Source: Alphaproteobacteria bacterium
GTDB taxonomy: Bacteria; Pseudomonadota; Alphaproteobacteria; Micropepsales; Micropepsaceae
NCBI GenBank assembly: GCA_023259375.1
Contig: JAHFQC010000033.1
Coordinates: 1 to 46,772, forward strand
DNA length: 46,772 nt
Direction of reading: 5' to 3'
The notes under the pieces are model-generated. The model did no database searches. It worked only from the letters and a program-made list of their open reading frames with translations, and was not told the origin of the DNA. The translations under genes were made by a program, and so were the position numbers. Positions 4,212 to 14,758 of this stretch are shown here, in pieces; position 1 is the stretch's first letter, and each line of letters begins with the position of its first letter.

Positions 4212-5393
4212 CTATTCCTGGACCGTAAACCGGCCGTTGTCCACTATGAAAACGTCGGCGCGACCCTCTAAATTATTGAATAAATTCAAGTCCGTACCGG
4301 TCATCCACGCCTGGGCGCCAAGCTCCAGGATTTCCTCGAACAAAGCGGCCCTGCGGCGGCCGTCGAGATGGGCGGCAACCTCGTCCAGAAGCAGCAGCGG
4401 GGCGCGGCCGTCGCGCTGGCGGGAAAGCTCCCAAGCGTCGGCCAGAATGATCGAAACCAGCAGCGCTTTCTGCTCGCCGGTGGAGCATTCGCGGGCGTCG
4501 GCGCGCTTGACCACGTGGCGGACGGCCAGATCGGAGCGGTGCGGGCCTTTGGTGGTGTGGCCGCTTTCGGCGTCGGCAATGCGGGCGCGGGCGAACACCT
4601 CGCGCAGGCGGTTTTCGGCGTCGCCTTCGGCCACCAGCGCGTCGGTGTCGCCTTCCATCGCCAGTTGCGCCTGCGGGAAGGCGCCCGCCTCGCCGCGTTC
4701 GCTCAGCATCGTGTTGAGCCGCGCCACGGTTTCGCCGCGGGCCAGCGCCAGCGCCGCGCCGGCTTCGGCCATTTCCTTTTCGAGACCATCGAGCCACATC
4801 GGATCGCGCGGGCCGTATTTGAGCAGCTTGGCGCGTTCGCGCATTGCCGTTTCGTAGCGCACCGCGCGGCGGCCGTGGGCGGGATCGAAGCCGAGCACCA
4901 GCCGGTCGATGAAGCGGCGGCGGCCCGAAGCGCCTTCGGAGAACAGGCGGTCCATCGCCGGCGTCAGCCAGGTCATCTGCACGACGTCGCCGAGATCGGC
5001 GCTGGAGGAGGCGGGCACGCCGTTGAGCCGGACCTGACGCCGCTCGCCGCCGCCGGGCCCGACCGACAGGCCGGTGCCGATTTCGTAAGTCTCGCCGCCG
5101 CGCGCGACCGTTGCCGCCACCGCCCACAACGCCTCGCTCGGTGCCGTCGGTCCGCGGCGGATGTGTTCGGAGAGTTTGGCGCCGCGCAGGCCCCGTCCGG
5201 GCGCCAGCAGCGAGATGGCGTCGAGGACATTGGTTTTGCCGGCGCCGTTGGCCCCCGCCAGCACGACAGGCCGTCCGCTGACCACCAGTTCGGCGCTGGC
5301 ATAGGAGCGGAAATTGGTGAGCTGGATGCGCGTCACCGCAAGACGGACCGCGCCTAACGGCTCCGCATTCGGCATCTGACGCTCAGTTTCCAT
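4212..5393 (-). CDS. recF: DNA replication/repair protein RecF
   Basis: SMC-like ATPase that helps load RecA at gaps through RecFOR and supports stalled forks; cytoplasmic. The 393-residue protein carries the Walker A motif GANGAGKT at about residues 47-54, the ABC-type signature within STGEQKALLVSIILA, and Walker B LLLLDEVAAHLD near the C-terminus. The conserved opening RIQLTNFRSY sits at residues 22-31. Two starts are possible: the ATG at 5393 (METERQ) or one six codons later (MPNAEP). The first is used because a purine-rich AGG lies just upstream. It follows dnaN after a gap of about 215 bp holding a large inverted repeat and runs into the LysE genes with a 2 bp gap. Length is slightly above the usual 360-380 because of the leader. 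Confidence 0.96.
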   Translation of the reverse strand: METERQMPNAEPLGAVRLAVTRIQLTNFRSYASAELVVSGRPVVLAGANGAGKTNVLDAISLLAPGRGLRGAKLSEHIRRGPTAPSEALWAVAATVARGGETYEIGTGLSVGPGGGERRQVRLNGVPASSSADLGDVVQMTWLTPAMDRLFSEGASGRRRFIDRLVLGFDPAHGRRAVRYETAMRERAKLLKYGPRDPMWLDGLEKEMAEAGAALALARGETVARLNTMLSERGEAGAFPQAQLAMEGDTDALVAEGDAENRLREVFARARIADAESGHTTKGPHRSDLAVRHVVKRADARECSTGEQKALLVSIILADAWELSRQRDGRAPLLLLDEVAAHLDGRRRAALFEEILELGAQAWMTGTDLNLFNNLEGRADVFIVDNGRFTVQE

Positions 5394-5414
5394 TCACGAC
5401 CTGTCCGCAAAATT

Positions 5415-5583
5415 TGTCATCCCCGGCCGAAGCCGCGTAGCGGCGAAGGGGAAGGGGACCCAGGTCCAACCACCAGGACGGCTCCAACAGAAGGAACCGG
5501 AACCTGTTCTTCAACACCGTAGTGCTCTGCCACCTGGGTCCCCTTCCCCTTGCTGCGCTTCGCTTGCGCGGCCGGGGATGACA
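5415..5583. repeat. Large imperfect inverted repeat between recF and dnaN
   Basis: The left arm (5415-5465) starts TGTCATCCCCGGCCG and ends AAGGGGAAGGGGACCCAGGT; the right arm (5532-5583) is its near-complete reverse complement, with the only large mismatch in the middle of each arm. The arms enclose about 65 bp. This is the form of the intergenic palindromic elements (RIME/BIME-like) seen in alphaproteobacterial genomes, and a transcript would fold into a very long hairpin. It lies between co-directional dnaN and recF, so it could affect mRNA stability or read-through. No second copy was seen in this window. The family label is an inference. Confidence 0.75.
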
Positions 5584-5608
5584 GATCGGGGATACCAGGT
5601 GCGCCCCA

Positions 5609-6727
5609 TCACACCCGCATGGGCATAAGGACGTAGAGCGTGCGCAGGTCGTCCGGGTCCTCGATCACGGTGGGCGAGCCCGCGTCCGACAGCAGGAACC
5701 GCACCGACTTGCCTTCGACCTGGCTGGTGATGTCGAGCACGTACTTGGCGTTGAAGCCGATCTCGATCGGCGTGGCCGAGTAGTTGGCCGCGAGTTCTTC
5801 CGTCGCCGTGCCGCTTTCCGGATTGATCACGGTCAGCGTGACCTTGTCCTTGGCGATGCCGAGCTTCACCGCGCGGGTCTTGTCGGCGGAGATGGTCGAC
5901 ACGCGGTCGACGGCGAGGCCGAATTCCTTGGCTTCCAGCGACAGCGCCTTGTCGTTGCCGGACGGGATCACCCGCTGGTAATCGGGGAAGGTGCCGTCGA
6001 TCAGCTTCGAGGTGAGGTCGACGCCGTTGAAGGCGAACTGGATCTTGGTATCCGACAGCGCGATTTCGATGGCGCCATCGGCGTCGTCGAGAAGGCGGCG
6101 CAGCTCGCCGATGGTCTTGCGCGGCACGATCACGCCCGGCATGTCGCCGGCGCCTTCGGGCAGCTCGAGTTCGAAGCGGGCGAGGCGGTGGCCGTCGGTG
6201 GCGACGGCGCGCAGGGTTTCCTTGTCCTCTTTGGCGGCATGGACGTAGATGCCGTTGAGATAGAACCGCGTCTCTTCGGTGGAGATGGCGAAGCGCGTCT
6301 TGTCGATCAGGCGCTTCAAGTCGTCCGCGGCGAGGCGGAAGCGATGCGGCAGCGCGCCCGCTGCCATCTGCGGGAAGTCTTCCTTCGGCAGGCAGGCGAG
6401 TTCGAACCGCACCGTGCCGGCCGAGACCTGCAGCCGGCCGCTTTCGCCGGCCATCAATTCGACTTGCACCTGCGCCCCGTCGGGCAGCTTGCGCACGATG
6501 TCGTAGAGCATGTGGGCGGGGGCGGTGGCGGCGCCGTTGCGCAGCACGTCGGCCGGCAGCGCCTCGACGATTTCGATATCGAGATCGGTGGCGGTGAGCT
6601 TGACCTGACCCTTGGCCGCTTCGACCATCACGTTCGAGAGAATTGGGATCGTGTTACGCCGCTCGACGACGCTCTGGACGTGGCTCAGCGCCTTGAGGAA
6701 AGCGCCGCGTTCGACATTGATCTTCAT
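5609..6727 (-). CDS. dnaN: DNA polymerase III beta subunit (sliding clamp)
   Basis: Ring-shaped processivity clamp that tethers polymerase and many repair proteins to DNA. The protein is 372 residues, the normal length, beginning MKINVERGAFLKALSHVQSVVERRNTIPILSNVMVEA, and ends with the characteristic RTLYVLMPMRV. The three clamp domains run in order, with the central FYLNGIYVH and ATDGHRLARFELELP motifs. The ATG at 6727 is the natural family start. In the usual order dnaN directly follows dnaA; here dnaA lies more than 4.6 kb away, separated by the deaminase island, a secreted hydrolase and a small secreted protein. Downstream on the same strand come recF, the LysE genes and gyrB. Confidence 0.97.
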   Translation of the reverse strand: MKINVERGAFLKALSHVQSVVERRNTIPILSNVMVEAAKGQVKLTATDLDIEIVEALPADVLRNGAATAPAHMLYDIVRKLPDGAQVQVELMAGESGRLQVSAGTVRFELACLPKEDFPQMAAGALPHRFRLAADDLKRLIDKTRFAISTEETRFYLNGIYVHAAKEDKETLRAVATDGHRLARFELELPEGAGDMPGVIVPRKTIGELRRLLDDADGAIEIALSDTKIQFAFNGVDLTSKLIDGTFPDYQRVIPSGNDKALSLEAKEFGLAVDRVSTISADKTRAVKLGIAKDKVTLTVINPESGTATEELAANYSATPIEIGFNAKYVLDITSQVEGKSVRFLLSDAGSPTVIEDPDDLRTLYVLMPMRV

Positions 6728-7049
6728 ATCTGCCGCCCTGCACCAATGGGGATGACCCGCTGGGGACCCCGAGTGAATTCACGTTACCGTGGGTTTGTTG
6801 GGATGGACGCACCGTCAGCGGTCACTTTTCCCGCCGCGCCCGCGCCGCCACCCGTCAGACCCACCCCCGCTACGCCGAAAGGCGCCGGTAAGTCCTTGAT
6901 TTTCTTGAGGTGGATACCGCCAGACTCAAGTAGGAAACCATAGCAGGCAAAGGGGCAGAATGCTAGCGGGAGCAGGGGGTTAGGGAGGTCAACCGCCAAG
7001 CTTCGCCCGCGAAGGTTTTGCCGTCGTAAAATGGTGAGAATGATGATCG
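6728..7049. other. Non-coding gap upstream of dnaN
   Basis: About 320 bp between dnaN and the deaminase island. It should contain the dnaN promoter, but no clear -35/-10 pair was found. A perfect 10-bp palindrome GTGAATTCAC lies at 6773-6782, some 45 bp upstream of the dnaN start, and a short inverted repeat CTTCG-CCCG-CGAAG near 7004-7017. A 71-codon open frame on the minus strand (6784-6999) has low-complexity Gly/Ala/Pro composition and no recognisable fold, and is not called. This stretch marks the change from high-GC replication genes to the AT-richer island. Confidence 0.5.
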
Positions 7050-7259
7050 CTATTCGTAGCGTCGGACTAAATCGACGATCGCGTCCACGTGCCTAAGACG
7101 TTCTGCGCGCTCACGTTGCTGGATCGCCTCATCAAGCCGAAATATTTGAGCTGATTTTGCAGCCTGCTGTAGGACTGGAGCAGCTGGTGTGGTTTGCGAT
7201 TGGAGCGCGTGGTCGGTCGAGAGGTCAAATCTAAGTTGATCAGGATTTTCCTTACTCAA
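7050..7259 (-). CDS. Small uncharacterised protein coupled to the dCTP deaminase gene
   Basis: A 69-codon frame not recognised as any family. The start is taken as TTG at 7259: a strong Shine-Dalgarno AAGGAGG lies 6 nt upstream inside the end of the deaminase gene, and the TTG overlaps the deaminase stop (TTGAGTAA), a layout typical of translational coupling. The protein begins MSKENPDQLRFDLSTDHALQ, has a Gln/Ala/Pro-rich middle, and ends in a charged, probably helical segment (LDEAIQQRERAERLRHVDAI). No signal peptide or membrane segment is visible. A CGCTA-TTCG-TAGCG hairpin spans the stop (7048-7061). A longer ATG start at 7292 exists but would bury the ribosome site. Its place suggests a partner or modulator of the deaminase, which is inference. 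Confidence 0.6.
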   Translation of the reverse strand: MSKENPDQLRFDLSTDHALQSQTTPAAPVLQQAAKSAQIFRLDEAIQQRERAERLRHVDAIVDLVRRYE

Positions 7260-8862
7260 CGCCAGCCTCCTTTCTCGGCTCAACCGAATCAAAAATTCTT
7301 TTCTCTTTTAGACCCTTTACTACGAAGGCTTCTAGCTCTGGCAATGCCGCAAGCGTTTTGTCGAATCGTGGGGCTGCCGTTTTGGGATCAACTTTCAGCA
7401 TTTTTCCCTCGCTTTTTCTGCTATCGGGAAGAGTCCTGAAGAGTTTCAGAAATCGTGACGGAGCTACTCCGTCATACGGCAGGATGCGAAGTTTTCCGGC
7501 GTCGTTTTCATCTTCTGTAATTGAATCTGAATGCAATTTCGTGGCCAAACTTTTCCTATAAGGTTCAATGTAATAAACTTCAGCAATTCCCGCTGCCACG
7601 ATGTGGCGCGCGCAGGAGTGGCATGGATAAGTCGTGCAATATAATTTTCCGCCACGAATTCTATTTCCAGCTAGATGACCTGCGGCCAAGATCGCTTGCA
7701 TTTCCGCGTGAATAGATCTCGAAAACTCTATTAGGCCGCGGATTTTTTTGTTTCCGAGCACAAGATTTTTTGCCCTCTCGCGGTTCTCGGAAACGAGAAC
7801 TGAACCATTTATCAACTCATCGACAATCAGTTCTGAGAGTCGTTTCTTTTCCTGATCGTTATTGCAGACGCCACCGCTCAGATTCCAGCAACGCTTATCG
7901 TTTTCCGAGCGAGGATCGGCTTTTTCGTCGGCTGAGTAGAGACTCCCCCCGAAACGAGGAACATCGTTCCAACCCACGGAAATCAATTCACCGTTCTCAT
8001 CGCAAAGAGCGGCTCCGACTTGGCGAGATAGACACGCAGAGTTTCCTGCCGCCGATGCCGCCGCATACATGGCCGTCTCGGCGGCGGTCGGTGTCCAGAT
8101 TCTGGTGCCAAGTATGATTTGCAGAAATCGCTCAACCCTGGTGCGAATTTGGGTGTCTGTATCCGAGTCAATCCTCAGAAAAAAATCTGCTTGAGGGAAT
8201 GTGTCTTCGACCGTCTGACCGTATTTGATCTCCTCTCCAGTATTCCTGTTTATGATTTTTAGCTCTTCGCCGGAATCGATATCTATAAGTGAGTGGACTT
8301 CGGTCTGGCTTAGGCCATCACTCGCGAGTGATTTTTCACGAGTGGGTAATGGTGAGTAAACTCCAATAAAATAAAGCATATCTCGATAGACTAGCCTGAG
8401 AACGTCAAGCTCCTGTTGGTTTTTTATCGAGTCAATGATGTGGCAAACTCGTCGACGAGCATGGAAATTTTTTCCAGACCGTTCCCTTTCGATGTCTCGT
8501 TCTATCGCAATTTCGTTTATTGCCAGTTCCGCCAGGACGCCAGCCCCATACTTTCCACGTAATTCATCTCCCGCTTCAATAAGTGCTCGTTTGCGTTCGA
8601 AACCATTTTGTGGGGGTATTGTTCTGCCATATTTCTCTATTAGGCGACTTAAGGTGATTATGTCGCGAGGCTCATAGCCAAAGTCTTCTTCGAGTTTGCT
8701 TTTAATGGCATTAGCAGCACTGTGAATGGGAGAGCCGATTGGTCCGCATAACGCAATGACCAATTCATCGGTATGTGTTGCTTCAATTGCTGCAGTCGTA
8801 TCGAATTTGGATTTCTTCGAACTCGATAGGCTTGACACGCCGCGCGGCGTTGCACCCCCCAT
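7252..8862 (-). CDS. Anti-phage dCTP deaminase (AvcD/DCD-type)
   Basis: Predicted defence enzyme that deaminates dCTP/dCMP on phage infection, draining the cytidine deoxynucleotide pool. The 536-residue protein has the two-part layout of this family. An N-terminal P-loop-like domain shows ELVIALCGPIGSPIHS around residues 33-48; it lacks the Walker A lysine, so kinase activity is doubtful. A C-terminal zinc deaminase domain carries SIHAEMQAILAAG with H385 and E387, and CTTYPCHSCARHIVAAGI with C414 and C417, the complete metal and proton-shuttle set. YYIEPYRKSLATKLHSDSI follows, as expected. Start ATG at 8862 with an AAGGGGGG ribosome site. The gene is visibly AT-richer than its neighbours, suggesting transfer. 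An ordinary dCMP deaminase would be about 150-200 residues and lack the N-terminal domain. The family assignment rests on architecture and motifs recalled, not on a search. Confidence 0.85.
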   Translation of the reverse strand: MGGATPRGVSSLSSSKKSKFDTTAAIEATHTDELVIALCGPIGSPIHSAANAIKSKLEEDFGYEPRDIITLSRLIEKYGRTIPPQNGFERKRALIEAGDELRGKYGAGVLAELAINEIAIERDIERERSGKNFHARRRVCHIIDSIKNQQELDVLRLVYRDMLYFIGVYSPLPTREKSLASDGLSQTEVHSLIDIDSGEELKIINRNTGEEIKYGQTVEDTFPQADFFLRIDSDTDTQIRTRVERFLQIILGTRIWTPTAAETAMYAAASAAGNSACLSRQVGAALCDENGELISVGWNDVPRFGGSLYSADEKADPRSENDKRCWNLSGGVCNNDQEKKRLSELIVDELINGSVLVSENRERAKNLVLGNKKIRGLIEFSRSIHAEMQAILAAGHLAGNRIRGGKLYCTTYPCHSCARHIVAAGIAEVYYIEPYRKSLATKLHSDSITEDENDAGKLRILPYDGVAPSRFLKLFRTLPDSRKSEGKMLKVDPKTAAPRFDKTLAALPELEAFVVKGLKEKRIFDSVEPRKEAGVE

Positions 8863-8889
8863 CTCATCCCCCCTTCAAAGTCAGCGAGA

Positions 8890-8918
8890 AATATATTCTG
8901 TTCCAGTTTTGACTTAAA
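8890..8918 (-). promoter_or_regulatory. Putative promoter of the dCTP deaminase gene
   Basis: Reading the minus strand, a -35-like TTTAAG (8913-8918) is followed after 17 bp by TATATT (8890-8895), a good -10. Transcription would start near 8883, giving a leader of about 20 nt before the ATG at 8862. The -35 match is only partial, so activation by a factor bound just upstream is possible. Confidence 0.45.
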
Positions 8919-8919
8919 C

Positions 8920-8937
8920 GCTCATCCCGATATGAGC
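8920..8937. promoter_or_regulatory. Inverted repeat just upstream of the deaminase promoter
   Basis: Perfect 6-bp arms GCTCAT and ATGAGC separated by 6 bp lie directly upstream of the putative -35 of the deaminase gene. The position suits a regulator-binding site. No regulator gene is present nearby, so the partner is unknown. Confidence 0.4.
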
Positions 8938-9018
8938 TAAAGCGCTGCAACTTGTGACTACATCTAAAACAACAATCGGGTTCAGATCATTTGTACCGTT
9001 GTGAATGTTCCTGAGAGT

Positions 9019-9102
9019 TAGTTGCGATTTTTTCGCGCGAAAAAAACGCGCCAATTTCTCAAGCCGTTTTTTCGGTGGGGCAGCGGGATAGTTGCGATTT
9101 TT
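9019..9102. repeat. AT-rich direct repeat and palindrome upstream of the deaminase gene
   Basis: TAGTTGCGATTTTT occurs twice in the same orientation, at 9019-9032 and 9089-9102, a 70 bp period. The first copy merges into a perfect 18-bp palindrome TTTTTTCGCGCGAAAAAA (9028-9045), extended on both sides by GCG/CGC with one mismatch. A transcript in either direction would form a hairpin with a U-rich flank, resembling a terminator or the end of a small RNA. The function is not known. Confidence 0.55.
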
Positions 9103-9865
9103 GCGATTTAAATTCGCGCTTCTTGTTGCTGTCTTTGCGCAAAATGGGAATTGGATGCGGCGCGCGTTACGTTCTTCAGCGGCAGACCCCCTTCGTCTCG
9201 GCGTTGACGCGCCGGTCGCGGGGCTACGCTGTCGTTACCCGCTCCCCCGCGAACGCGCGGGGGCAGAAAAGAGGGCGGCGGTGCGCGGTCACCTGCGCGC
9301 GCGCGCGTGCAGAAAAGAACATCTCCGCGTCTCCGCGTGCTCTGTCGTTTTCGCGTTCGCACACCAGTGCGCTCCCGCACTGCATCACAAGCTGCGGGCT
9401 GGAATAGCTCCATCTCGCACATTAAATCGTGCGGTCCGGCGCGCGCGGGGCTTGAAGCGGGGCGGGGCGGTTCCCACCTCTTTCACCGAGTGCGGCCACG
9501 CATGGGTCCCACCAATTCAGTGAAGCGAAGGTGCCGACGTCGGCGTCCGGGTGACAACGGACCCGCCGGCCTGCCGTGGCTTCGAAGATATGGCCCGCAG
9601 CGTTTCGCGGGCCGTACTTTATAGGGGGCGGGGAGGGGGGGTGCGGAATTCCGCCAATCAAAGATCAACGGCGTGCGGTATGCGTGGCGGGGCAGGCGAG
9701 ATGTGGTGTCGCTGATCTGTCGCGCGGTTTTGCGGGCGTCGCGGCGGCGACAAAGTGCGAAGGTTTTCAACCGGACAGTGCTGCGGCCGCAATTGGTGCG
9801 GCGGGCGCGGTCGAGTAGCGTTGCCGCCAGCAAAACAAGGCGCTTCGGCGCCGGGAGGGAAACGC

Positions 9866-10855
9866 ATGAAACGTACTCTGATGACCTTGGTCGGACTGAT
9901 GCTGGGCGCCGCCGCGATGGCGCAGGACGCGCCTCCGGGCGTGCCGCAATTTCCCAAGCAGACGCCGGAAGAGCAGGCCCGCCAAGCGGCGATCATGGAG
10001 GCCTACAACAAGACGCCCGACACCGAAGGCACCGGCCCTTATGCGGCGATGAAGGAAGTCGATCCCGGTCTGGCGAACCACGTCGTCTACCGGCCCAAGG
10101 ATCTGTCGAAAGTGGCCAAGGGCCAGCTCGGCATCGTCGCCTGGGGCAATGGTGGCTGCGGCAAGAACGGCGCCGCCGAGCGCATGCATCTGCTCGAGAT
10201 CGCCAGCCACGGCTATGTCGTGATCGCGCCCGGCGGCCTGTATGGCGGTCCCGGCGGCGCGACGGAGCCGGCCGATCCGCCGGATATGCCCAAGATGACG
10301 GTCCGCACCACCACCGCCGACGTCACGGCCGGTTATGAGTGGGCGCTGAAGGAAGCGGGCCGCGCCGGCAGTCCGTATTACGGCAAGATCGATCCGGCCA
10401 AGCTGGCGGTGACCGGCTTCAGCTGCGGCGGTCTGCAGGCGATCGAGCAGGCGGGCGATCCGCGCGTCAAGGCGGTCGTCATCGACAACAGCGGCGTCTT
10501 CCCCGATGACGTCAAGATCCTGCAAGGCATCAGCGCCAAGAAGGCGACGCTGAAGACCTTCCACACGCCGGTGATCTACATTATCGGCGGCAAGAAGGAC
10601 ATCGCCTACGGCAATGCCACCGACGACTTCTCGCGCATCGACCATGTGCCGGTGATGCTGGTGCAGAACGATGCCGGTCACGGCGGCGATTTCTTGAAGC
10701 CGAACGGCGGCGCCTCGGCCGCGGTCGCGGTGAAGTGGCTCGAATGGCAGCTGCGCGGCGACAAGACCGCCGGCGCCTATTTCACCGGCCCCGACGGCAT
10801 CGCCAAAGATCCGCAGTGGAAGGTGGAGAAAAAGAACTTCCCGACGACACCGTAA
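9866..10855 (+). CDS. Secreted alpha/beta-hydrolase
   Basis: Exported hydrolase of 329 residues, substrate unknown. The ATG at 9866 has a GGGAGGGA ribosome site 5 nt upstream and gives a clear signal peptide (MKRTLMTLVGLMLGAAAMA, cut before QD). The frame continues upstream but those residues are Arg-rich noise. The catalytic nucleophile elbow is GFSCGG with Ser186, preceded by LAVTG. An oxyanion-region GNGGCGKNG follows the strand GIVAWG, and GHGGDF near residue 272 supplies the likely catalytic His. The protein resembles dienelactone-hydrolase or chlorophyllase/PETase-like folds; I cannot name a closer family. It is transcribed alone, against its neighbours, and ends at a strong terminator. 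Confidence 0.8.
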   Translation: MKRTLMTLVGLMLGAAAMAQDAPPGVPQFPKQTPEEQARQAAIMEAYNKTPDTEGTGPYAAMKEVDPGLANHVVYRPKDLSKVAKGQLGIVAWGNGGCGKNGAAERMHLLEIASHGYVVIAPGGLYGGPGGATEPADPPDMPKMTVRTTTADVTAGYEWALKEAGRAGSPYYGKIDPAKLAVTGFSCGGLQAIEQAGDPRVKAVVIDNSGVFPDDVKILQGISAKKATLKTFHTPVIYIIGGKKDIAYGNATDDFSRIDHVPVMLVQNDAGHGGDFLKPNGGASAAVAVKWLEWQLRGDKTAGAYFTGPDGIAKDPQWKVEKKNFPTTP

Positions 10856-10916: not shown

Positions 10917-11198
10917 TCACCAGTGATCGGTGCGCCAGGTTTTGCTGCTTTCGTCCCACCAGCCTTTGTAGCGGCGCCAGCACCATTCGTGGACTTCGGC
11001 CAGTTTTTCGCGCGCTTTCATGCCGTGGCCGCTATCGGCACCGTATTTGGCGATGACGCGGTCGACCTTCTCCTGCACGCGCTCATAGCGATAGCGGCAG
11101 GTGGCGATGTTGTCGTTGATGACGGTGTCGTCGGCGGCAGATGCCAGCGAACTCAAGGCTAGCAGCGCCACGCCGGCGCAGACGATTTGTTTCAGCAT
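10917..11198 (-). CDS. Small secreted protein of unknown function
   Basis: 93 residues, not recognised as a family. ATG at 11198 with GAGGGGG 8 nt upstream opens a clean signal peptide, MLKQIVCAGVALLALSSLASA, so the product is periplasmic or secreted, with about 72 mature residues. The mature part is highly charged and Trp/Tyr-rich with two cysteines (ATCRYRYERVQEKV and EVHEWCWRRYKGWW) that could form a disulfide. The frame is open further upstream, but that extension is basic and would mask the signal peptide. It lies downstream of dnaA on the same strand but is separated from it by a terminator (11269-11308), so it probably has its own promoter. Confidence 0.75.
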   Translation of the reverse strand: MLKQIVCAGVALLALSSLASAADDTVINDNIATCRYRYERVQEKVDRVIAKYGADSGHGMKAREKLAEVHEWCWRRYKGWWDESSKTWRTDHW

Positions 11199-11268
11199 TT
11201 GGACGTCCCCCTCGACGTTTGTCGTTTTCAACGAGACTAATCCCCGCCGTCGCCGCCCAGCAAGGCAC

Positions 11269-11308
11269 AAAAGAAAACCGCCCGCCTCTCGTTAGAGAAG
11301 CGGGCGGT
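11269..11308 (-). terminator. Intrinsic terminator after dnaA
   Basis: The hairpin ACCGCCCG / CGGGCGGT (11277-11308), with a further internal CTCT-CGTT-AGAG stem, is followed on the minus strand by TTTTCTTTTG. It lies 87 bp past the dnaA stop. The outer stem sequence is the same as that of the terminator at 10863-10900. Confidence 0.85.
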
Positions 11309-11394: not shown

Positions 11395-12840
11395 TTACAC
11401 CGGGCGCGTCAGGACGCTGCGAAGGAATTCGACTTCGGTCTTGAACTCCTTGTCCTCCTGGCACAGCGCTTCGACGCGGCGGCAGGCGTGCAGCACCGTG
11501 GTGTGATCGCGGCCGCCGAAACGCCGGCCGATTTCCGGCAGCGAACGGGTGGTCAGGATGCGGGCGAGGTACATCGCCACCTGACGCGGACGGGCAACGC
11601 GGCGGGCGCGCTGCGGCGAGTGGAAATCGCGCACGTCGAGTTTGTAGTACTCGGCGGTCTTGCGCTGGATATCCTCGATCGAGGTCTTCTTGGTCCCGGT
11701 CGAACGCAGGCCCACGGCTTCCTCGGCCATCTCCGCCGTCACCGGCTTCTTGGTCAGGTCGGCATAGGTCGCGAGCTTGGTGAAGATCGCGATCAGCTCG
11801 CGCGGGGAGGCGTCTTCGATGTCTGCGATGCGCTCGAGCACGTCTTCCGGCATGACCACGCCGGGACGCAGGCGGGCGAACTCGGCCGCACGATGCTTGA
11901 GGATATCAAGCCGCGTATCGCGGTCGGGCTTGGAAAGCTGCAGCACCAGGCCGCCGGAGATGCGGCTCTTGATGTCGGCGCCGAGGCCTTCGAGCTGGGC
12001 CGGGGCACGGTCGGCGGCGATCACCACCTTGCGGCGCAGGTCGGCGAGGGCATTGACCGTATAGAGGAACTCCGAGGCGGTCGCGGCGGACCGGCAGATG
12101 TGCTGCAGGTCGTCGATGATGAGCACGTCGGCCGAGCGCAGCTCTTCCTTAAAGTTCAGCGTGTCCTTGCGATAAAGGGCACCGAGGAAGTGGCGCATGA
12201 AGTCTTCGGCGCGCAGGAACAGCACCTTCTTGGCGCGCTTGCGGAATTCCAGGGCGGCGGCGTTGAGCAGGTGGGTCTTGCCGTAGCCGAAGCCGCCATG
12301 GATGTAGAGGATGGTCAGGTCGTTCGAATTGCCTTCGGCAAACGCCCGCGCGGCGCTGTGGCCGAACTCGTTGGCCTGGCCGGGAATGAAGGAGTCAAAC
12401 GTCTGCTGCGGATGCAGCATGCGGCTCCACAGGCCCTGACCCTGGCCATTGGCGCCTTCCGGCCCGACGTGAGGCATATAGGAGACGTTCGACGGCGGTA
12501 CCGAGGTCGGCTGCGGGTTGATGCGCACCGGCTCCTTCGACACCAGCGGCGCGATCTGCGACGGGGCGGAGGCGACGACGATGGCAATCGAGGCCGGCTC
12601 GGCGTTCTCCATGCGGAAAGCGCGCTCGATGCGGGCAATGTAATGGTTGGCAACCCAGTTGCGGACGAAGGGCTTAGCGGCGCCGATTTTGAGGTCGTCC
12701 TGGTCCCAGCTTTCCAGCGTCAAAGGGGCGATCCAGGCGTCGAAGATCGGATCTCCGAGCTCCTTGCGAAGACGCTCGCGCACACGCACCCAAAGAGTAG
12801 GCCAATCCTTGGAGGTCGGCTTGCTTGTTGTCTGTCCCAT
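11395..12840 (-). CDS. dnaA: Chromosomal replication initiator protein DnaA
   Basis: AAA+ ATPase that binds DnaA boxes and opens the origin. 481 residues. Domain I is the N-terminal WVRVRERLRKELGDPIFDAWIAPL; the variable domain II covers roughly residues 95-145; the AAA+ domain begins at about LHPQQTFDSFIPG, with Walker A GGFGYGKTH at residues 182-190 and Walker B VLIIDDLQHI. The C-terminal DNA-binding domain holds the DnaA signature GGRDHTTVLHACRRVEALC. The ATG at 12840 is the family start. It is not followed directly by dnaN: a terminator and two small transcription units separate them. A rhodanese gene and rpsT lie upstream on the same strand. Confidence 0.97.
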   Translation of the reverse strand: MGQTTSKPTSKDWPTLWVRVRERLRKELGDPIFDAWIAPLTLESWDQDDLKIGAAKPFVRNWVANHYIARIERAFRMENAEPASIAIVVASAPSQIAPLVSKEPVRINPQPTSVPPSNVSYMPHVGPEGANGQGQGLWSRMLHPQQTFDSFIPGQANEFGHSAARAFAEGNSNDLTILYIHGGFGYGKTHLLNAAALEFRKRAKKVLFLRAEDFMRHFLGALYRKDTLNFKEELRSADVLIIDDLQHICRSAATASEFLYTVNALADLRRKVVIAADRAPAQLEGLGADIKSRISGGLVLQLSKPDRDTRLDILKHRAAEFARLRPGVVMPEDVLERIADIEDASPRELIAIFTKLATYADLTKKPVTAEMAEEAVGLRSTGTKKTSIEDIQRKTAEYYKLDVRDFHSPQRARRVARPRQVAMYLARILTTRSLPEIGRRFGGRDHTTVLHACRRVEALCQEDKEFKTEVEFLRSVLTRPV

Positions 12841-13004
12841 AATCCCACACCCGCTATGCCCGACGCGCTGAAATTTTTTTTCTGATACGCGTCGTATGAT
12901 TGTTTGTTCGAAACCCCGGACCCTTCCGTGATCCGGTCTAGTTGCCTCCTAGGCGCCGACCCCGCGGCGCCATCACCCTTCGCATTGCTTCCTCCCTCGA
13001 TTTT
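12841..13004 (-). promoter_or_regulatory. dnaA upstream region
   Basis: The 164 bp before dnaA contain an A/T run (12872-12881) and an inverted repeat ATACG-CGT-CGTAT at 12885-12897, about 45 bp upstream of the start codon. A GC-rich hairpin GGCGCCG/CGGCGCC (12952-12971) lies just past the rhodanese stop and has no T-run. No exact DnaA box (TTATCCACA) was found. This is the likely dnaA promoter region, but the -35 and -10 elements cannot be assigned with confidence. Confidence 0.4.
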
Positions 13005-13442
13005 TTATGTCTGCACCCACGGAAGGTCTGCCGCCTTCCATCCATTGTTCTTGCCGCGGTGGTGTTCGCCGTCGAGATCGCCCTCGAAGCCGCCCGCGAT
13101 GTTGTAGCTGTTCGTGTAGCCCGAGGCCGTCGCCGCAATCGCGGCGGCACGCGACCGCGCGCCCGAACGGCACAGGAAGTAGATGGCGGAGTCTTGCGCA
13201 GGTCCTAACGCGGCGCCGAGTTCAGCCAAGAAATCTGTGTTCGAATCCATCGCCGGGAACGACACCCATTCGATGCAATGCACCCGGCGTCCCAGGGAGG
13301 AGAGGTCCGGCACTCCGACAAACGCCCACTCTGCCGTCGTGCGCACGTCCACCAGCCGGGCGCGTGGGTCCGCCTGAAGCGCTGCCCACGCTTCCGTGAC
13401 ACTGACGTCACCTGCATAGCTGGAGTGAAGGGAAGTGGTCAT
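13005..13442 (-). CDS. Rhodanese-like domain protein (sulfurtransferase)
   Basis: Single-domain rhodanese of 145 residues, cytoplasmic. It carries the active-site loop CRSGARS with the catalytic Cys91, the strand ARLVDVRTTAEWAFVGVPD, and the late NIAGGFEGDLD motif, all in the expected order. It probably transfers sulfane sulfur from a small-molecule donor; the acceptor is unknown. The frame is open for another 41 codons upstream (to a GTG at 13565), but the family alignment begins at MTTSLHSS, so the ATG at 13442 is chosen even though its ribosome site is weak. It lies between rpsT and dnaA on the same strand, 164 bp upstream of dnaA. Confidence 0.87.
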   Translation of the reverse strand: MTTSLHSSYAGDVSVTEAWAALQADPRARLVDVRTTAEWAFVGVPDLSSLGRRVHCIEWVSFPAMDSNTDFLAELGAALGPAQDSAIYFLCRSGARSRAAAIAATASGYTNSYNIAGGFEGDLDGEHHRGKNNGWKAADLPWVQT

Positions 13443-13848
13443 GTTGGGAACAGTCCGAAGAAACGTCCTCGCGCGATCGGGATGGTCCCGCCGCTTTACG
13501 TATTCAATTTCAGTTTTACTTGGTTTTACTGCGAAGTCGTCACATCTGGACTTCGAGATGCACACAACGCCCTTCTCTGTATTTTTATTTTACTAGGCAT
13601 TGTTTTATCTCGTGCCTCCACCGTGGATAACCTTAAGCAAAATCGTGGGGGGGCGGCAAGGGGACATAGCGAGAACATAAAAGATTCTATGACGAATCGA
13701 TGATACCGGGGCTATTCCTAACCGTATGTTCTTTATACTGAAAATCTAACTGTCGTGGTTAATTCCGGCGAATCAGTAGCTTACCGAATCGAATTCGTCA
13801 TGTTGCAGCGCACTGCGGCCTTTTGGAGTTTTCGTCAGCGCACGGACA
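13443..13848. promoter_or_regulatory. AT-rich gap with clustered GANTC sites and one DnaA-box-like site
   Basis: Over 400 bp without a supported gene, distinctly AT-rich for this window. Four GANTC sites (methylated by CcrM in alphaproteobacteria) lie at 13683-13687, 13694-13698, 13770-13774 and 13786-13790. CGTGGATAA at 13622-13630 is one mismatch from the DnaA-box complement TGTGGATAA. GGTTAA near 13758-13763 gives TTAACCAC on the minus strand, close to a CtrA half-site (TTAACCAT). This could be a cell-cycle-controlled regulatory region for dnaA and its upstream gene or part of an origin. Only one near-match DnaA box was found, so an origin call is not justified. Confidence 0.4.
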
Positions 13849-13881
13849 AATAAAAACGGGCCCAAGACAATCTTGAACCCG
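13849..13881 (-). terminator. Intrinsic terminator after rpsT
   Basis: On the minus strand, an 11-bp stem CGGGTTCAAGA / TCTTGGGCCCG (two G-U pairs) with the loop TTG is followed by TTTTTATT. It lies 36 bp past the rpsT stop. Confidence 0.9.
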
Positions 13882-13916
13882 CTTTCACAAAAACTACAAG
13901 AGTCAAGCGATGGCGA

Positions 13917-14183
13917 TCACTTCGCCAGCTTTGCGACCCGCTTGGAGAGGCGAGAAACCTTCCGGGAACCGGTGTTCTTGTGGACAACGCCCTTGGAGAC
14001 GCCGCGCATGATTTCCGGCTCGGCGGCCTTCAAGGCCTCCTGAGCAGCCTTGGCGTCGCCGGAGGCAATGGCTTCCTCAACCTTGCGCACATAACCGCGA
14101 ATACGGGTCTTGCGCGAATGGTTGATGGCCTCGCGTTTGGCGGCGGTCCGGGTGCGCTTTTTGGCTGAGGCGATATTCGGCAT
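13917..14183 (-). CDS. rpsT: 30S ribosomal protein S20
   Basis: Small-subunit protein that binds 16S rRNA early in assembly. 88 residues, the normal length, beginning [43 protein letters not shown] and ending [15 protein letters not shown]; Lys/Arg-rich and helical throughout. The start ATG at 14183 is the family start. It is monocistronic, with its own terminator at 13849-13881. The rpsT to dnaA order on one strand is shared with Caulobacter and related alphaproteobacteria. Confidence 0.97.
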
Positions 14184-14332
14184 TGGTCGGTTACTTCCCT
14201 AAAGAGGCGGCGCGTATAGCCCGTGGGCGGGCCCGGGTCAATGTTCGCCTGAGCGCCGGGCCGCGGCTTTTTTCCGCCATTTGGGCCATCTGTGGCAAGT
14301 CGGCCCAAATCTGGGCCCTGGCGGCTGGTTGG

Positions 14333-14758
14333 TTACTCATCCCGAACCTTGCCGCGGTTGCGCTTGAGGTTGGCGTGCTTCTTCTTGTGCTGCAGCCGCT
14401 CTTCCTTGGCCCCACGGGAGGGTTTGGTCTTGTAGCGCTTTTTGGGCTCGACCGTGGCCTCACGGATCAATTCGGCAAGGCGGGCGCGAACCTCCTCCCG
14501 GTTCCTGTTCTGGTCGCGGAACTTACGGCCTACCAGCACCAGGACGCCGTCCTTGGTGAGGCGGCTTTTGAGGGTCGACATCAGGCGGAAGCGCACCGGT
14601 TCGGGCAGGGACAAGCTGAACGCCACATTGAACCGGAGCTGCACCGCGCTCGACACTTTGTTGACGTTCTGGCCGCCGGGGCCGGTGGCGAGCACGAAGC
14701 TTTCCTCCAGCTCGCGTTCGTCGATGGCGATCTCGGGCGTGATGCGAATCTCAGGCAT
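14333..14758 (-). CDS. arfB: Alternative ribosome-rescue factor / class I release-factor-like protein
   Basis: Peptidyl-tRNA hydrolase that releases stalled ribosomes without a stop codon. 141 residues. The catalytic GGQ sits in ATGPGGQNVNKVSSAVQLRF near residues 25-30, and the protein lacks the codon-recognition domain of RF1/RF2, as expected for ArfB/YaeJ. The very basic C-terminal tail (KKRYKTKPSRGAKEERLQHKKKHANLKRNRGKVRDE) is the part that senses the empty mRNA channel. The ATG at 14758 (MPEIRITPEIAIDE) is preferred over a longer frame because it matches the family N-terminus. It lies back-to-back with the ArsR gene, 57 bp apart. Confidence 0.93.
   Translation of the reverse strand: MPEIRITPEIAIDERELEESFVLATGPGGQNVNKVSSAVQLRFNVAFSLSLPEPVRFRLMSTLKSRLTKDGVLVLVGRKFRDQNRNREEVRARLAELIREATVEPKKRYKTKPSRGAKEERLQHKKKHANLKRNRGKVRDE

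What the first reader, a model, noticed from the sequence alone, without database searches (positions are those of the whole stretch)
7050..9110. Probable phage-defence island (AvcD-type dCTP deaminase) inserted in the dnaA-dnaN interval
A 536-residue protein with a degenerate P-loop domain and a complete HAE/PCxxC deaminase domain, the architecture of anti-phage dCTP deaminases, sits in DNA visibly AT-richer than the rest of the window, between dnaN and dnaA, which are normally adjacent. A short promoter with an inverted repeat and a strong ribosome site are present. A defence gene in a replication operon region is unusual and makes this the best candidate for a new or divergent system.
Basis: partly seen in the sequence, partly recalled or inferred. 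Interest (0 to 1): 0.75.

Follow-up and report, generated by a model that had tools for sequence, protein, structure and literature searches.

The report
Anti-phage deaminase with unannotated small partner
A known kind of anti-phage enzyme that destroys a DNA building block sits in a gene-insertion hotspot beside the replication genes, and it appears to come with a tiny, unannotated companion protein that travels with it across bacterial groups and carries a motif resembling those that dock onto the DNA replication clamp.

Summary
ORF 7252-8862 (-) is a 536-aa anti-phage dCTP deaminase (NCBIfam NF041025, 462 bits, cut-off 400) in a low-GC insert between dnaN and dnaA. In this genus the two genes are usually about 0.25 kb apart, but three close relatives carry other cargo at the same dnaN-side boundary: a HerA-like ATPase, an Xre-RES pair, a split type IIG-like R-M gene.

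A like-placed small ORF follows 82 of 82 deaminases of this clade that I examined and 11 of 11 classed in viral contigs. No such motif-bearing ORF follows 21 AvcD-like ones. Ten of ten close pairs show pN below pS; Pfam, NCBIfam and PADLOC know no such family. It has an N-terminal QL[S/E]LDF-like motif (broad form 69 of 82; published clamp consensus 40 of 82; controls 2-5%) and a predicted C-terminal helix.

Best reading: a two-gene variant of this defence, in which a cognate small protein, instead of or besides the AvcI RNA, controls the enzyme and links it to the sliding clamp. Regulation and clamp binding are inferred, not shown.

The parts
7252..8862 (-). Anti-phage dCTP deaminase, 536 aa: N-terminal P-loop-kinase-like domain and C-terminal zinc deaminase domain
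   Evidence: NF041025 462 bits, cut-off 400; PADLOC dCTPase 1.5e-161; PF00383 residues 261-432; AF2 pLDDT 84 with Foldseek hits to T4 dCMP deaminase and an adenylate-kinase-related protein
7050..7259 (-). Unannotated small partner gene, 69 aa, TTG start overlapping the deaminase stop
   Evidence: like-placed ORF in 82 of 82 clade loci and 11 of 11 viral-contig clade members; pN < pS in 10 of 10 close pairs; profile hits in 398 genomes clear only where this deaminase type is present
7221..7238 (-). QLRFDL, clamp-binding-like motif of the partner (residues 8-13)
   Evidence: Broad motif in 69 of 82 partners, 98 of 3750 control ORFs. The window's own copy has F instead of L/M at position 4 and so misses the published consensus
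7056..7136 (-). Predicted C-terminal helix of the partner (residues 42-68)
   Evidence: AF2, ten-residue block means of pLDDT 94-97; no structure predicted before it
7266..7273 (-). Putative ribosome-binding site AAAGGAGG of the partner gene
   Evidence: Read by eye
8868..8875 (-). Putative purine-rich ribosome-binding site (AAGGGGGG) of the deaminase
   Evidence: Read by eye
9019..9102 (.). Upstream region with 14-nt direct repeat AAAAATCGCAACTA (9019-9032, 9089-9102) and palindrome (9028-9045); possible operator
   Evidence: Read by eye; function inferred
6986..9366 (.). Insert, between the points where DNA similarity to the closest relative stops and resumes; its low-GC core is about 7001-9000
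   Evidence: blastn against L120: window 5512-6985 and 9367-9613 match, nothing between; GC profile
5609..6727 (-). dnaN (sliding clamp), flank
   Evidence: Homologues in 36 of 41 genus genomes, best full-length ones 78-98% identical; name by recall
11395..12840 (-). dnaA, flank
   Evidence: Homologues in 39 of 41 genus genomes searched; name by recall

Best explanation
A mobile two-gene anti-phage module. The deaminase converts dCTP/dCMP to dUTP/dUMP when a phage replicates, starving phage DNA synthesis (inferred from family and intact catalytic residues). The overlapping 69-aa gene is its cognate regulator. Its C-terminal helix most likely binds the deaminase and holds it in check, and its N-terminal QLxLxF-like motif most likely docks on the sliding clamp, so that control is tied to replication. 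Shown: gene overlap, conservation, selection as a protein, motif enrichment, clade specificity, insertion at a hotspot. Inferred: deaminase binding, inhibition, clamp binding, trigger.
For: Deaminase identity. Partner ORF in 82 of 82 clade loci, 11 of 11 viral-contig clade members and 2 of 2 E. coli loci read. In 398 Pseudomonadota genomes the partner profile scores clearly only in the two that carry this deaminase type (E 2.3e-15 and 1.2e-11; next 0.007). pN < pS in 10 of 10 pairs. Motif enrichment 69 of 82 against 98 of 3750, and 40 of 82 against 79 of 3750 for the published consensus. The motif lies in a part predicted unstructured, followed by a confident helix. A second, different partner type in another clade carries QxLLF or QLSFNL-like strings. 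Insert absent from relatives.
Against: No binding or activity was tested. 13 of 82 partners (10 of them Bacteroidota by record title) lack the broad motif, so it cannot be essential to the partner's core role. The window's own motif departs from the published consensus at position 4. Four of the 82 (L069, L075, L088, L095) match the partner profile only weakly (E 0.02-0.23). The relaxed motif in the second partner type is only weakly above chance (per-protein shuffled rate 0.13-0.56). AvcI-like RNA cannot be excluded, because AvcD-like loci also show little upstream conservation.
Confidence: 0.5

Rival explanations
1. The partner is a plain labile protein antitoxin (or activator) of the deaminase; the QLxLxF motif binds the deaminase or another protein, not the clamp.
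For: Gene order, overlap, small size, unstructured N-terminus plus helix are antitoxin-like; 13 of 82 lack the broad motif, several of them keeping central and C-terminal resemblance.
Against: The consensus QL[S/E]LDF is close to measured clamp motifs such as QVELEF and QVEMEF (PMC13254535, passages), and a different partner type carries a similar string.
Confidence: 0.3
2. The partner is itself a clamp-binding effector, like SocB or RipA, that stalls replication while the deaminase drains dCTP.
For: Clamp-targeting toxins of toxin-antitoxin pairs exist: SocB (PMC9690074, passages) and RipA (PMC12795458, abstract and section list).
Against: The motif is missing in 13 of 82. A third gene that would be its antitoxin was not looked for systematically.
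Confidence: 0.1
3. The deaminase is a housekeeping dCMP deaminase and the insert an ordinary metabolic gene.
For: The C-terminal domain is related to dCMP deaminases.
Against: NF041025 above cut-off and PADLOC dCTPase over both domains; low GC, no close copy in 36 genus genomes; a separate short deaminase-like gene, possibly the housekeeping one, exists on contig 118.
Confidence: 0.04
4. The downstream region acts as an RNA (an AvcI moved to the 3' side), not as a protein.
For: AvcD is controlled by an RNA antitoxin (PMC10511110, abstract, introduction and passages).
Against: pN < pS in 10 of 10 pairs and a shared peptide motif across distant hosts.
Confidence: 0.04

Closest known systems
AvcID (AvcD deaminase and AvcI RNA antitoxin, type III toxin-antitoxin)
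   Same: Same enzyme family and domain order, same catalytic motifs, expected dCTP/dCMP depletion
   Different: Clade apart from AvcD-like plasmid copies; a conserved protein partner downstream; no AvcI-like RNA found (not excluded)
Anti-phage dCTP deaminase (NF041025; PADLOC dCTPase)
   Same: Scores above the NCBIfam equivalog cut-off over residues 33-477
   Different: No model for the small partner was hit in Pfam, NCBIfam or PADLOC (7 partners tested)
SocB and RipA, clamp-targeting toxins of toxin-antitoxin pairs
   Same: Small-locus system with a protein that meets, or may meet, the sliding clamp
   Different: No sequence comparison was made; here the clamp-like motif is on the putative regulator beside a nucleotide-depleting enzyme

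Membership tests
Anti-phage dCTP deaminase (NF041025) | Score above curated cut-off | tested here: met
   462.2 bits against 400
Anti-phage dCTP deaminase (NF041025) | Zinc deaminase motifs HAE and PCxxC | tested here: met
   Residues 385-387 and 413-417; H, E, P, C, C invariant in 102 aligned rows
Anti-phage dCTP deaminase (NF041025) | N-terminal P-loop-kinase-like domain | tested here: met
   AF2 model and Foldseek hits to adenylate-kinase-related 3lw7; Walker A degenerate, as in the clade consensus
Anti-phage dCTP deaminase (NF041025) | Protection from phage, dCTP depletion | not testable with these tools
   Needs bench work
AvcID type III toxin-antitoxin | AvcI RNA encoded beside avcD that inhibits the enzyme | tested here: inconclusive
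   No Rfam hit in the window (whether Rfam holds AvcI was not checked). Upstream fold z mean -0.24 in 20 clade loci, against -2.5 to 0.4 in 6 AvcD-like ones; no upstream DNA similarity in 8 of 11 clade pairs, present in 3. AvcD-like loci show little upstream similarity too. Start positions are uncertain
AvcID type III toxin-antitoxin | Membership of the AvcD-like clade | tested here: not met
   Window lies in a 74-row clade (SH-aLRT 98) apart from the 6-row AvcD-like clade (SH-aLRT 100). Which clade holds the experimentally tested V. cholerae AvcD was not checked; the Vibrio plasmid copy L019 served as stand-in
Sliding-clamp-binding proteins | Motif Q-phi-x-[LM]-[FL] or Q-phi-x-[LM]-x-[FL] | tested here: not met
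   Window copy QLRFDL has F at position 4; family-wide 40 of 82 meet it, 69 of 82 meet a broader form
Sliding-clamp-binding proteins | Physical binding to DnaN | not testable with these tools
   Needs two-hybrid, calorimetry or a complex prediction
Type II toxin-antitoxin antitoxin | Protein that binds and neutralises the toxin | not testable with these tools
   Only gene order, size and predicted helix known

The most novel reading that the evidence does not exclude
A large clade of anti-phage dCTP deaminases is controlled not by the AvcI RNA but by a clamp-docking small protein that couples nucleotide depletion to the replisome. A further clade solved the same problem with a different, larger partner that also carries a clamp-like motif.
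Probability: 0.35. Interest if true: 0.8.

Novelty: new variant of a known kind. Interest (0 to 1): 0.6.

Why it matters
As I recall, dCTP deaminases are usually detected as single-gene defences. If this clade needs a small protein that annotation skips (as in the two E. coli records read), cloning the deaminase alone would misjudge its toxicity and activity. A clamp-docking regulator would suggest how nucleotide-depleting defences without a detected AvcI know that a phage is replicating, which a few gene constructs in a laboratory E. coli strain could test.

Tried and rejected
Housekeeping deaminase: rejected on model scores and patchy distribution. Known RNA family: no Rfam hit in the window. 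AvcI-like RNA upstream: fold z-scores and pairwise upstream comparison gave no clear sign, but the test is weak. Integration repeats at the insert edges: no shared string over 9 nt between the two edge regions compared. Known family for the partner: none in Pfam, NCBIfam, PADLOC for 7 small partners and one larger one (one weak PAS_2 hit at E 0.16 ignored). Plasmid tblastn with the window's partner: one chance-level hit, E 2, although the same collection holds a partner ORF on the Pantoea plasmid, so plain BLAST is too weak for this fast-evolving protein. An early count (61 of 82) rose after widening the start window and correcting five deaminase ends that my script had read past a stop. The tree was built before that correction: five rows carry read-through tails and L040 is still labelled as lacking a partner; one search shows it has one. 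The count of 82 rests partly on a permissive profile built from most of the same loci; the viral-contig set and the 398-genome search are the independent tests, and only up to 14 first-look candidates per genome were scored. Dropped rows: L159 (nearest clade member only 34% identical) from the viral counts; L164-L168 (weak hits) not examined; L113-L115, L118 and L119 of the 19-genome sample not put in the tree; L092 left out of the tree as a copy of L091. In one search one of six genomes known to carry the pair gave no profile hit, so the profile misses divergent partners.

Full report
What is there. The minus-strand ORF 7252-8862 codes for 536 aa. It scores 462.2 bits on NCBIfam NF041025 'anti-phage dCTP deaminase' (cut-off 400, residues 33-477), 1.5e-161 on the PADLOC dCTPase model, and above cut-off on Pfam PF00383. 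HAE and PCxxC are intact and invariant in 102 aligned family rows; the P-loop is degenerate in this protein and in its clade consensus. An AF2 model (mean pLDDT 84) gives Foldseek matches to T4 dCMP deaminase and to an adenylate-kinase-related protein; none of the 50 matches printed is a full-length structure of this family, and by sequence only the deaminase part finds solved relatives (6 sequences).

Where it sits. GC falls to 47-49% at 7001-9000 against roughly 60-70% over most of the window. Compared with the closest relative of the genus (G457, dnaN 98% identical), DNA similarity stops at window 6985 and resumes at 9367; between those points G457 has a different low-GC insert with a 629-aa HerA-like ATPase. 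G007 (16.6-kb gap) has an Xre/MbcA-type antitoxin and RES toxin gene next to dnaN, and G010 a split type IIG-like R-M gene; both share the dnaN-side boundary at 6984-6985. By my arithmetic on the places printed, dnaA and dnaN lie on one contig in 31 relatives (two of them with a partial copy of one gene): the gap is 0.21-0.29 kb in 21 of 31 and 1.2-16.6 kb in 10 of 31; the window has 4.67 kb. None of 36 genus genomes searched holds a close copy of the deaminase; three have a full-length homologue at 31-33% identity. So the gap is a variable hotspot and the deaminase probably a recent guest.

The missed gene. A TTG-started ORF of 69 aa (7050-7259) overlaps the deaminase stop and has AAAGGAGG upstream. 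With the Pantoea plasmid copy and the window this makes 82 loci. After correcting five deaminase ends, 82 of 82 have a 47-113-aa ORF starting from 58 nt before to 40 nt after the deaminase stop, 49 of 82 overlapping it. Some starts are uncertain, four ORFs fit the partner profile only weakly, and several loci are near-copies (L091/L092, L059/L060). In 10 of 10 close pairs pN is below pS, and in 9 of 10 the partner's pN exceeds the deaminase's: a real but fast-evolving gene. A Shine-Dalgarno-like string precedes 22 of 82 starts, against 167 of 1575 chance ATGs: enriched, but not general.

Motif. A broad form, Q[LMIF]x[LFIM] then F or x[FLIMV], occurs in 69 of 82 partners, 98 of 3750 other ORFs of like size in the same loci and 4.5% of shuffled partners. 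The published clamp consensus (Q-phi-x-[LM]-[FL] or Q-phi-x-[LM]-x-[FL]; PMC13254535, passages) occurs in 40 of 82, against 79 of 3750 controls and 2.5% of shuffles. The broad form was drawn up after seeing the partners; the published one was not. The commonest letters are Q-L-[SE]-L-D-F. The window's own copy, QLRFDL, meets the broad form only. AF2 predicts no structure before residue 42 and one confident helix at 42-68.

Independent tests. In viral contigs (31 of 36 loci examined) I classed each deaminase by its nearest labelled relative: 11 of this clade, 15 AvcD-like, 4 of a third group, one (L159) too distant to class. A small partner ORF follows 11 of 11 of this clade (published motif in 6, broad motif in 2 more, neither in 3). 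A motif-bearing ORF follows 0 of 15 AvcD-like ones and 0 of 6 AvcD-like ones from plasmids and genomes; an ORF of any kind in the same span occurs in 3 of these 21 (L019, L103, L146). These 21 include near-copies, and L104 and L150 are the same sequence. In one sample of 398 Pseudomonadota genomes, 19 have the deaminase family at E <= 1e-40, two of them of this type. The partner profile scores clearly only in those two (2.3e-15 and 1.2e-11; the next, 0.007 and 0.009, look like chance, at most 14 candidates scored per genome). The profile missed the partner in one of six genomes known to carry it.

Family structure. A quick tree of 102 deaminases (SH-aLRT only) puts the small-partner rows in a 74-row clade (98) and an 8-row clade (99), six AvcD-like rows without partner in a clade (100), and a third group of six in another (100). 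In the eight rows outside these no motif-bearing small ORF was seen. The joining fork is unresolved. Of the third group, five have a different, overlapping partner and the sixth is cut by its contig end; in viral contigs 3 of 4 such loci have it, L158 not. The eight larger partners have 153-202 aa; 2 of 2 tested have no Pfam hit. All eight carry Q-x-x-[LMF] strings such as QALLF, QPLLF or QLSFNL, at roughly aligned spots before the folded part. With that relaxed pattern shuffles match in 13-56% of trials each, and the eight are related, so this is a hint only.

A testable copy. Seven of 5426 E. coli genomes have a match to this clade's deaminase, over 40% of the query at 67% identity. In the two records read it lies in a Qin-like prophage region (dicABC-type, hokD and rem neighbours; the name Qin is by recall). 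In SJC33 the deaminase is annotated whole, 98% identical to the Pantoea one over the stretch aligned, and the partner ORF is present but not annotated.

Literature. Searches of the held library (0, 20 of 25, 20 of 24, 15 of 1558 and 15 of 15 papers listed) showed no title or abstract start that describes a small protein partner of anti-phage dCTP deaminases. Full texts of those listings were not read apart from the passages named here, and the original reports, as I recall them, are mostly in subscription journals. Of PMC10511110 I read the abstract, introduction and passages: AvcI is an RNA antitoxin that is lost when phage stops host transcription. Of PMC9690074 and PMC13254535 I saw passages; of PMC12795458 the abstract and section list.

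Verdict. Ordinary as an enzyme, well supported as an inserted defence gene, and new in having a conserved protein partner. That the partner regulates the deaminase is likely but inferred; that it binds the clamp is a motif-based proposal.

Noticed in passing
L006, L020, L108, L111, L116, L160, L161, L162: Another clade of the same deaminase family has a different overlapping partner of 153-202 aa with a shared domain (about ..FDLRxxPRFDLxG..) and a QxLLF or QLSFNL-like string before it.
   Followed up: partly
L120, L121, L122 (dnaA-dnaN gap of genus relatives): The gap holds different cargo in each: HerA-like ATPase, 16.6 kb with an Xre-RES pair, split type IIG-like R-M gene; some other relatives (L123-L129) hold genes of mostly normal GC, by eye TPR-like or ABC-transporter-like in several.
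   Followed up: partly
L131 (E. coli SJC33) 5383-7238; L132: A copy of the deaminase with unannotated partner ORF in a Qin-like prophage region; in L132 the deaminase region is annotated in two pieces.
   Followed up: partly
window 9019-9102: 14-nt direct repeat, 70 bp apart, and an A/T-flanked CGCGCG palindrome upstream of the deaminase; possible operator.
   Followed up: no
L018 2724-2909, L021 705-887: Small annotated ORFs of about 60 aa directly upstream of AvcD-like deaminases on E. coli plasmids; they may lie over the AvcI RNA.
   Followed up: no
window 9869-10855 and 10917-11270: A dienelactone-hydrolase-like gene and a small ORF lie between the insert and dnaA; parts of this stretch are shared with G457 and G007.
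   Followed up: partly
window 13001-14500: A second, milder GC dip (55%) beyond dnaA.
   Followed up: no
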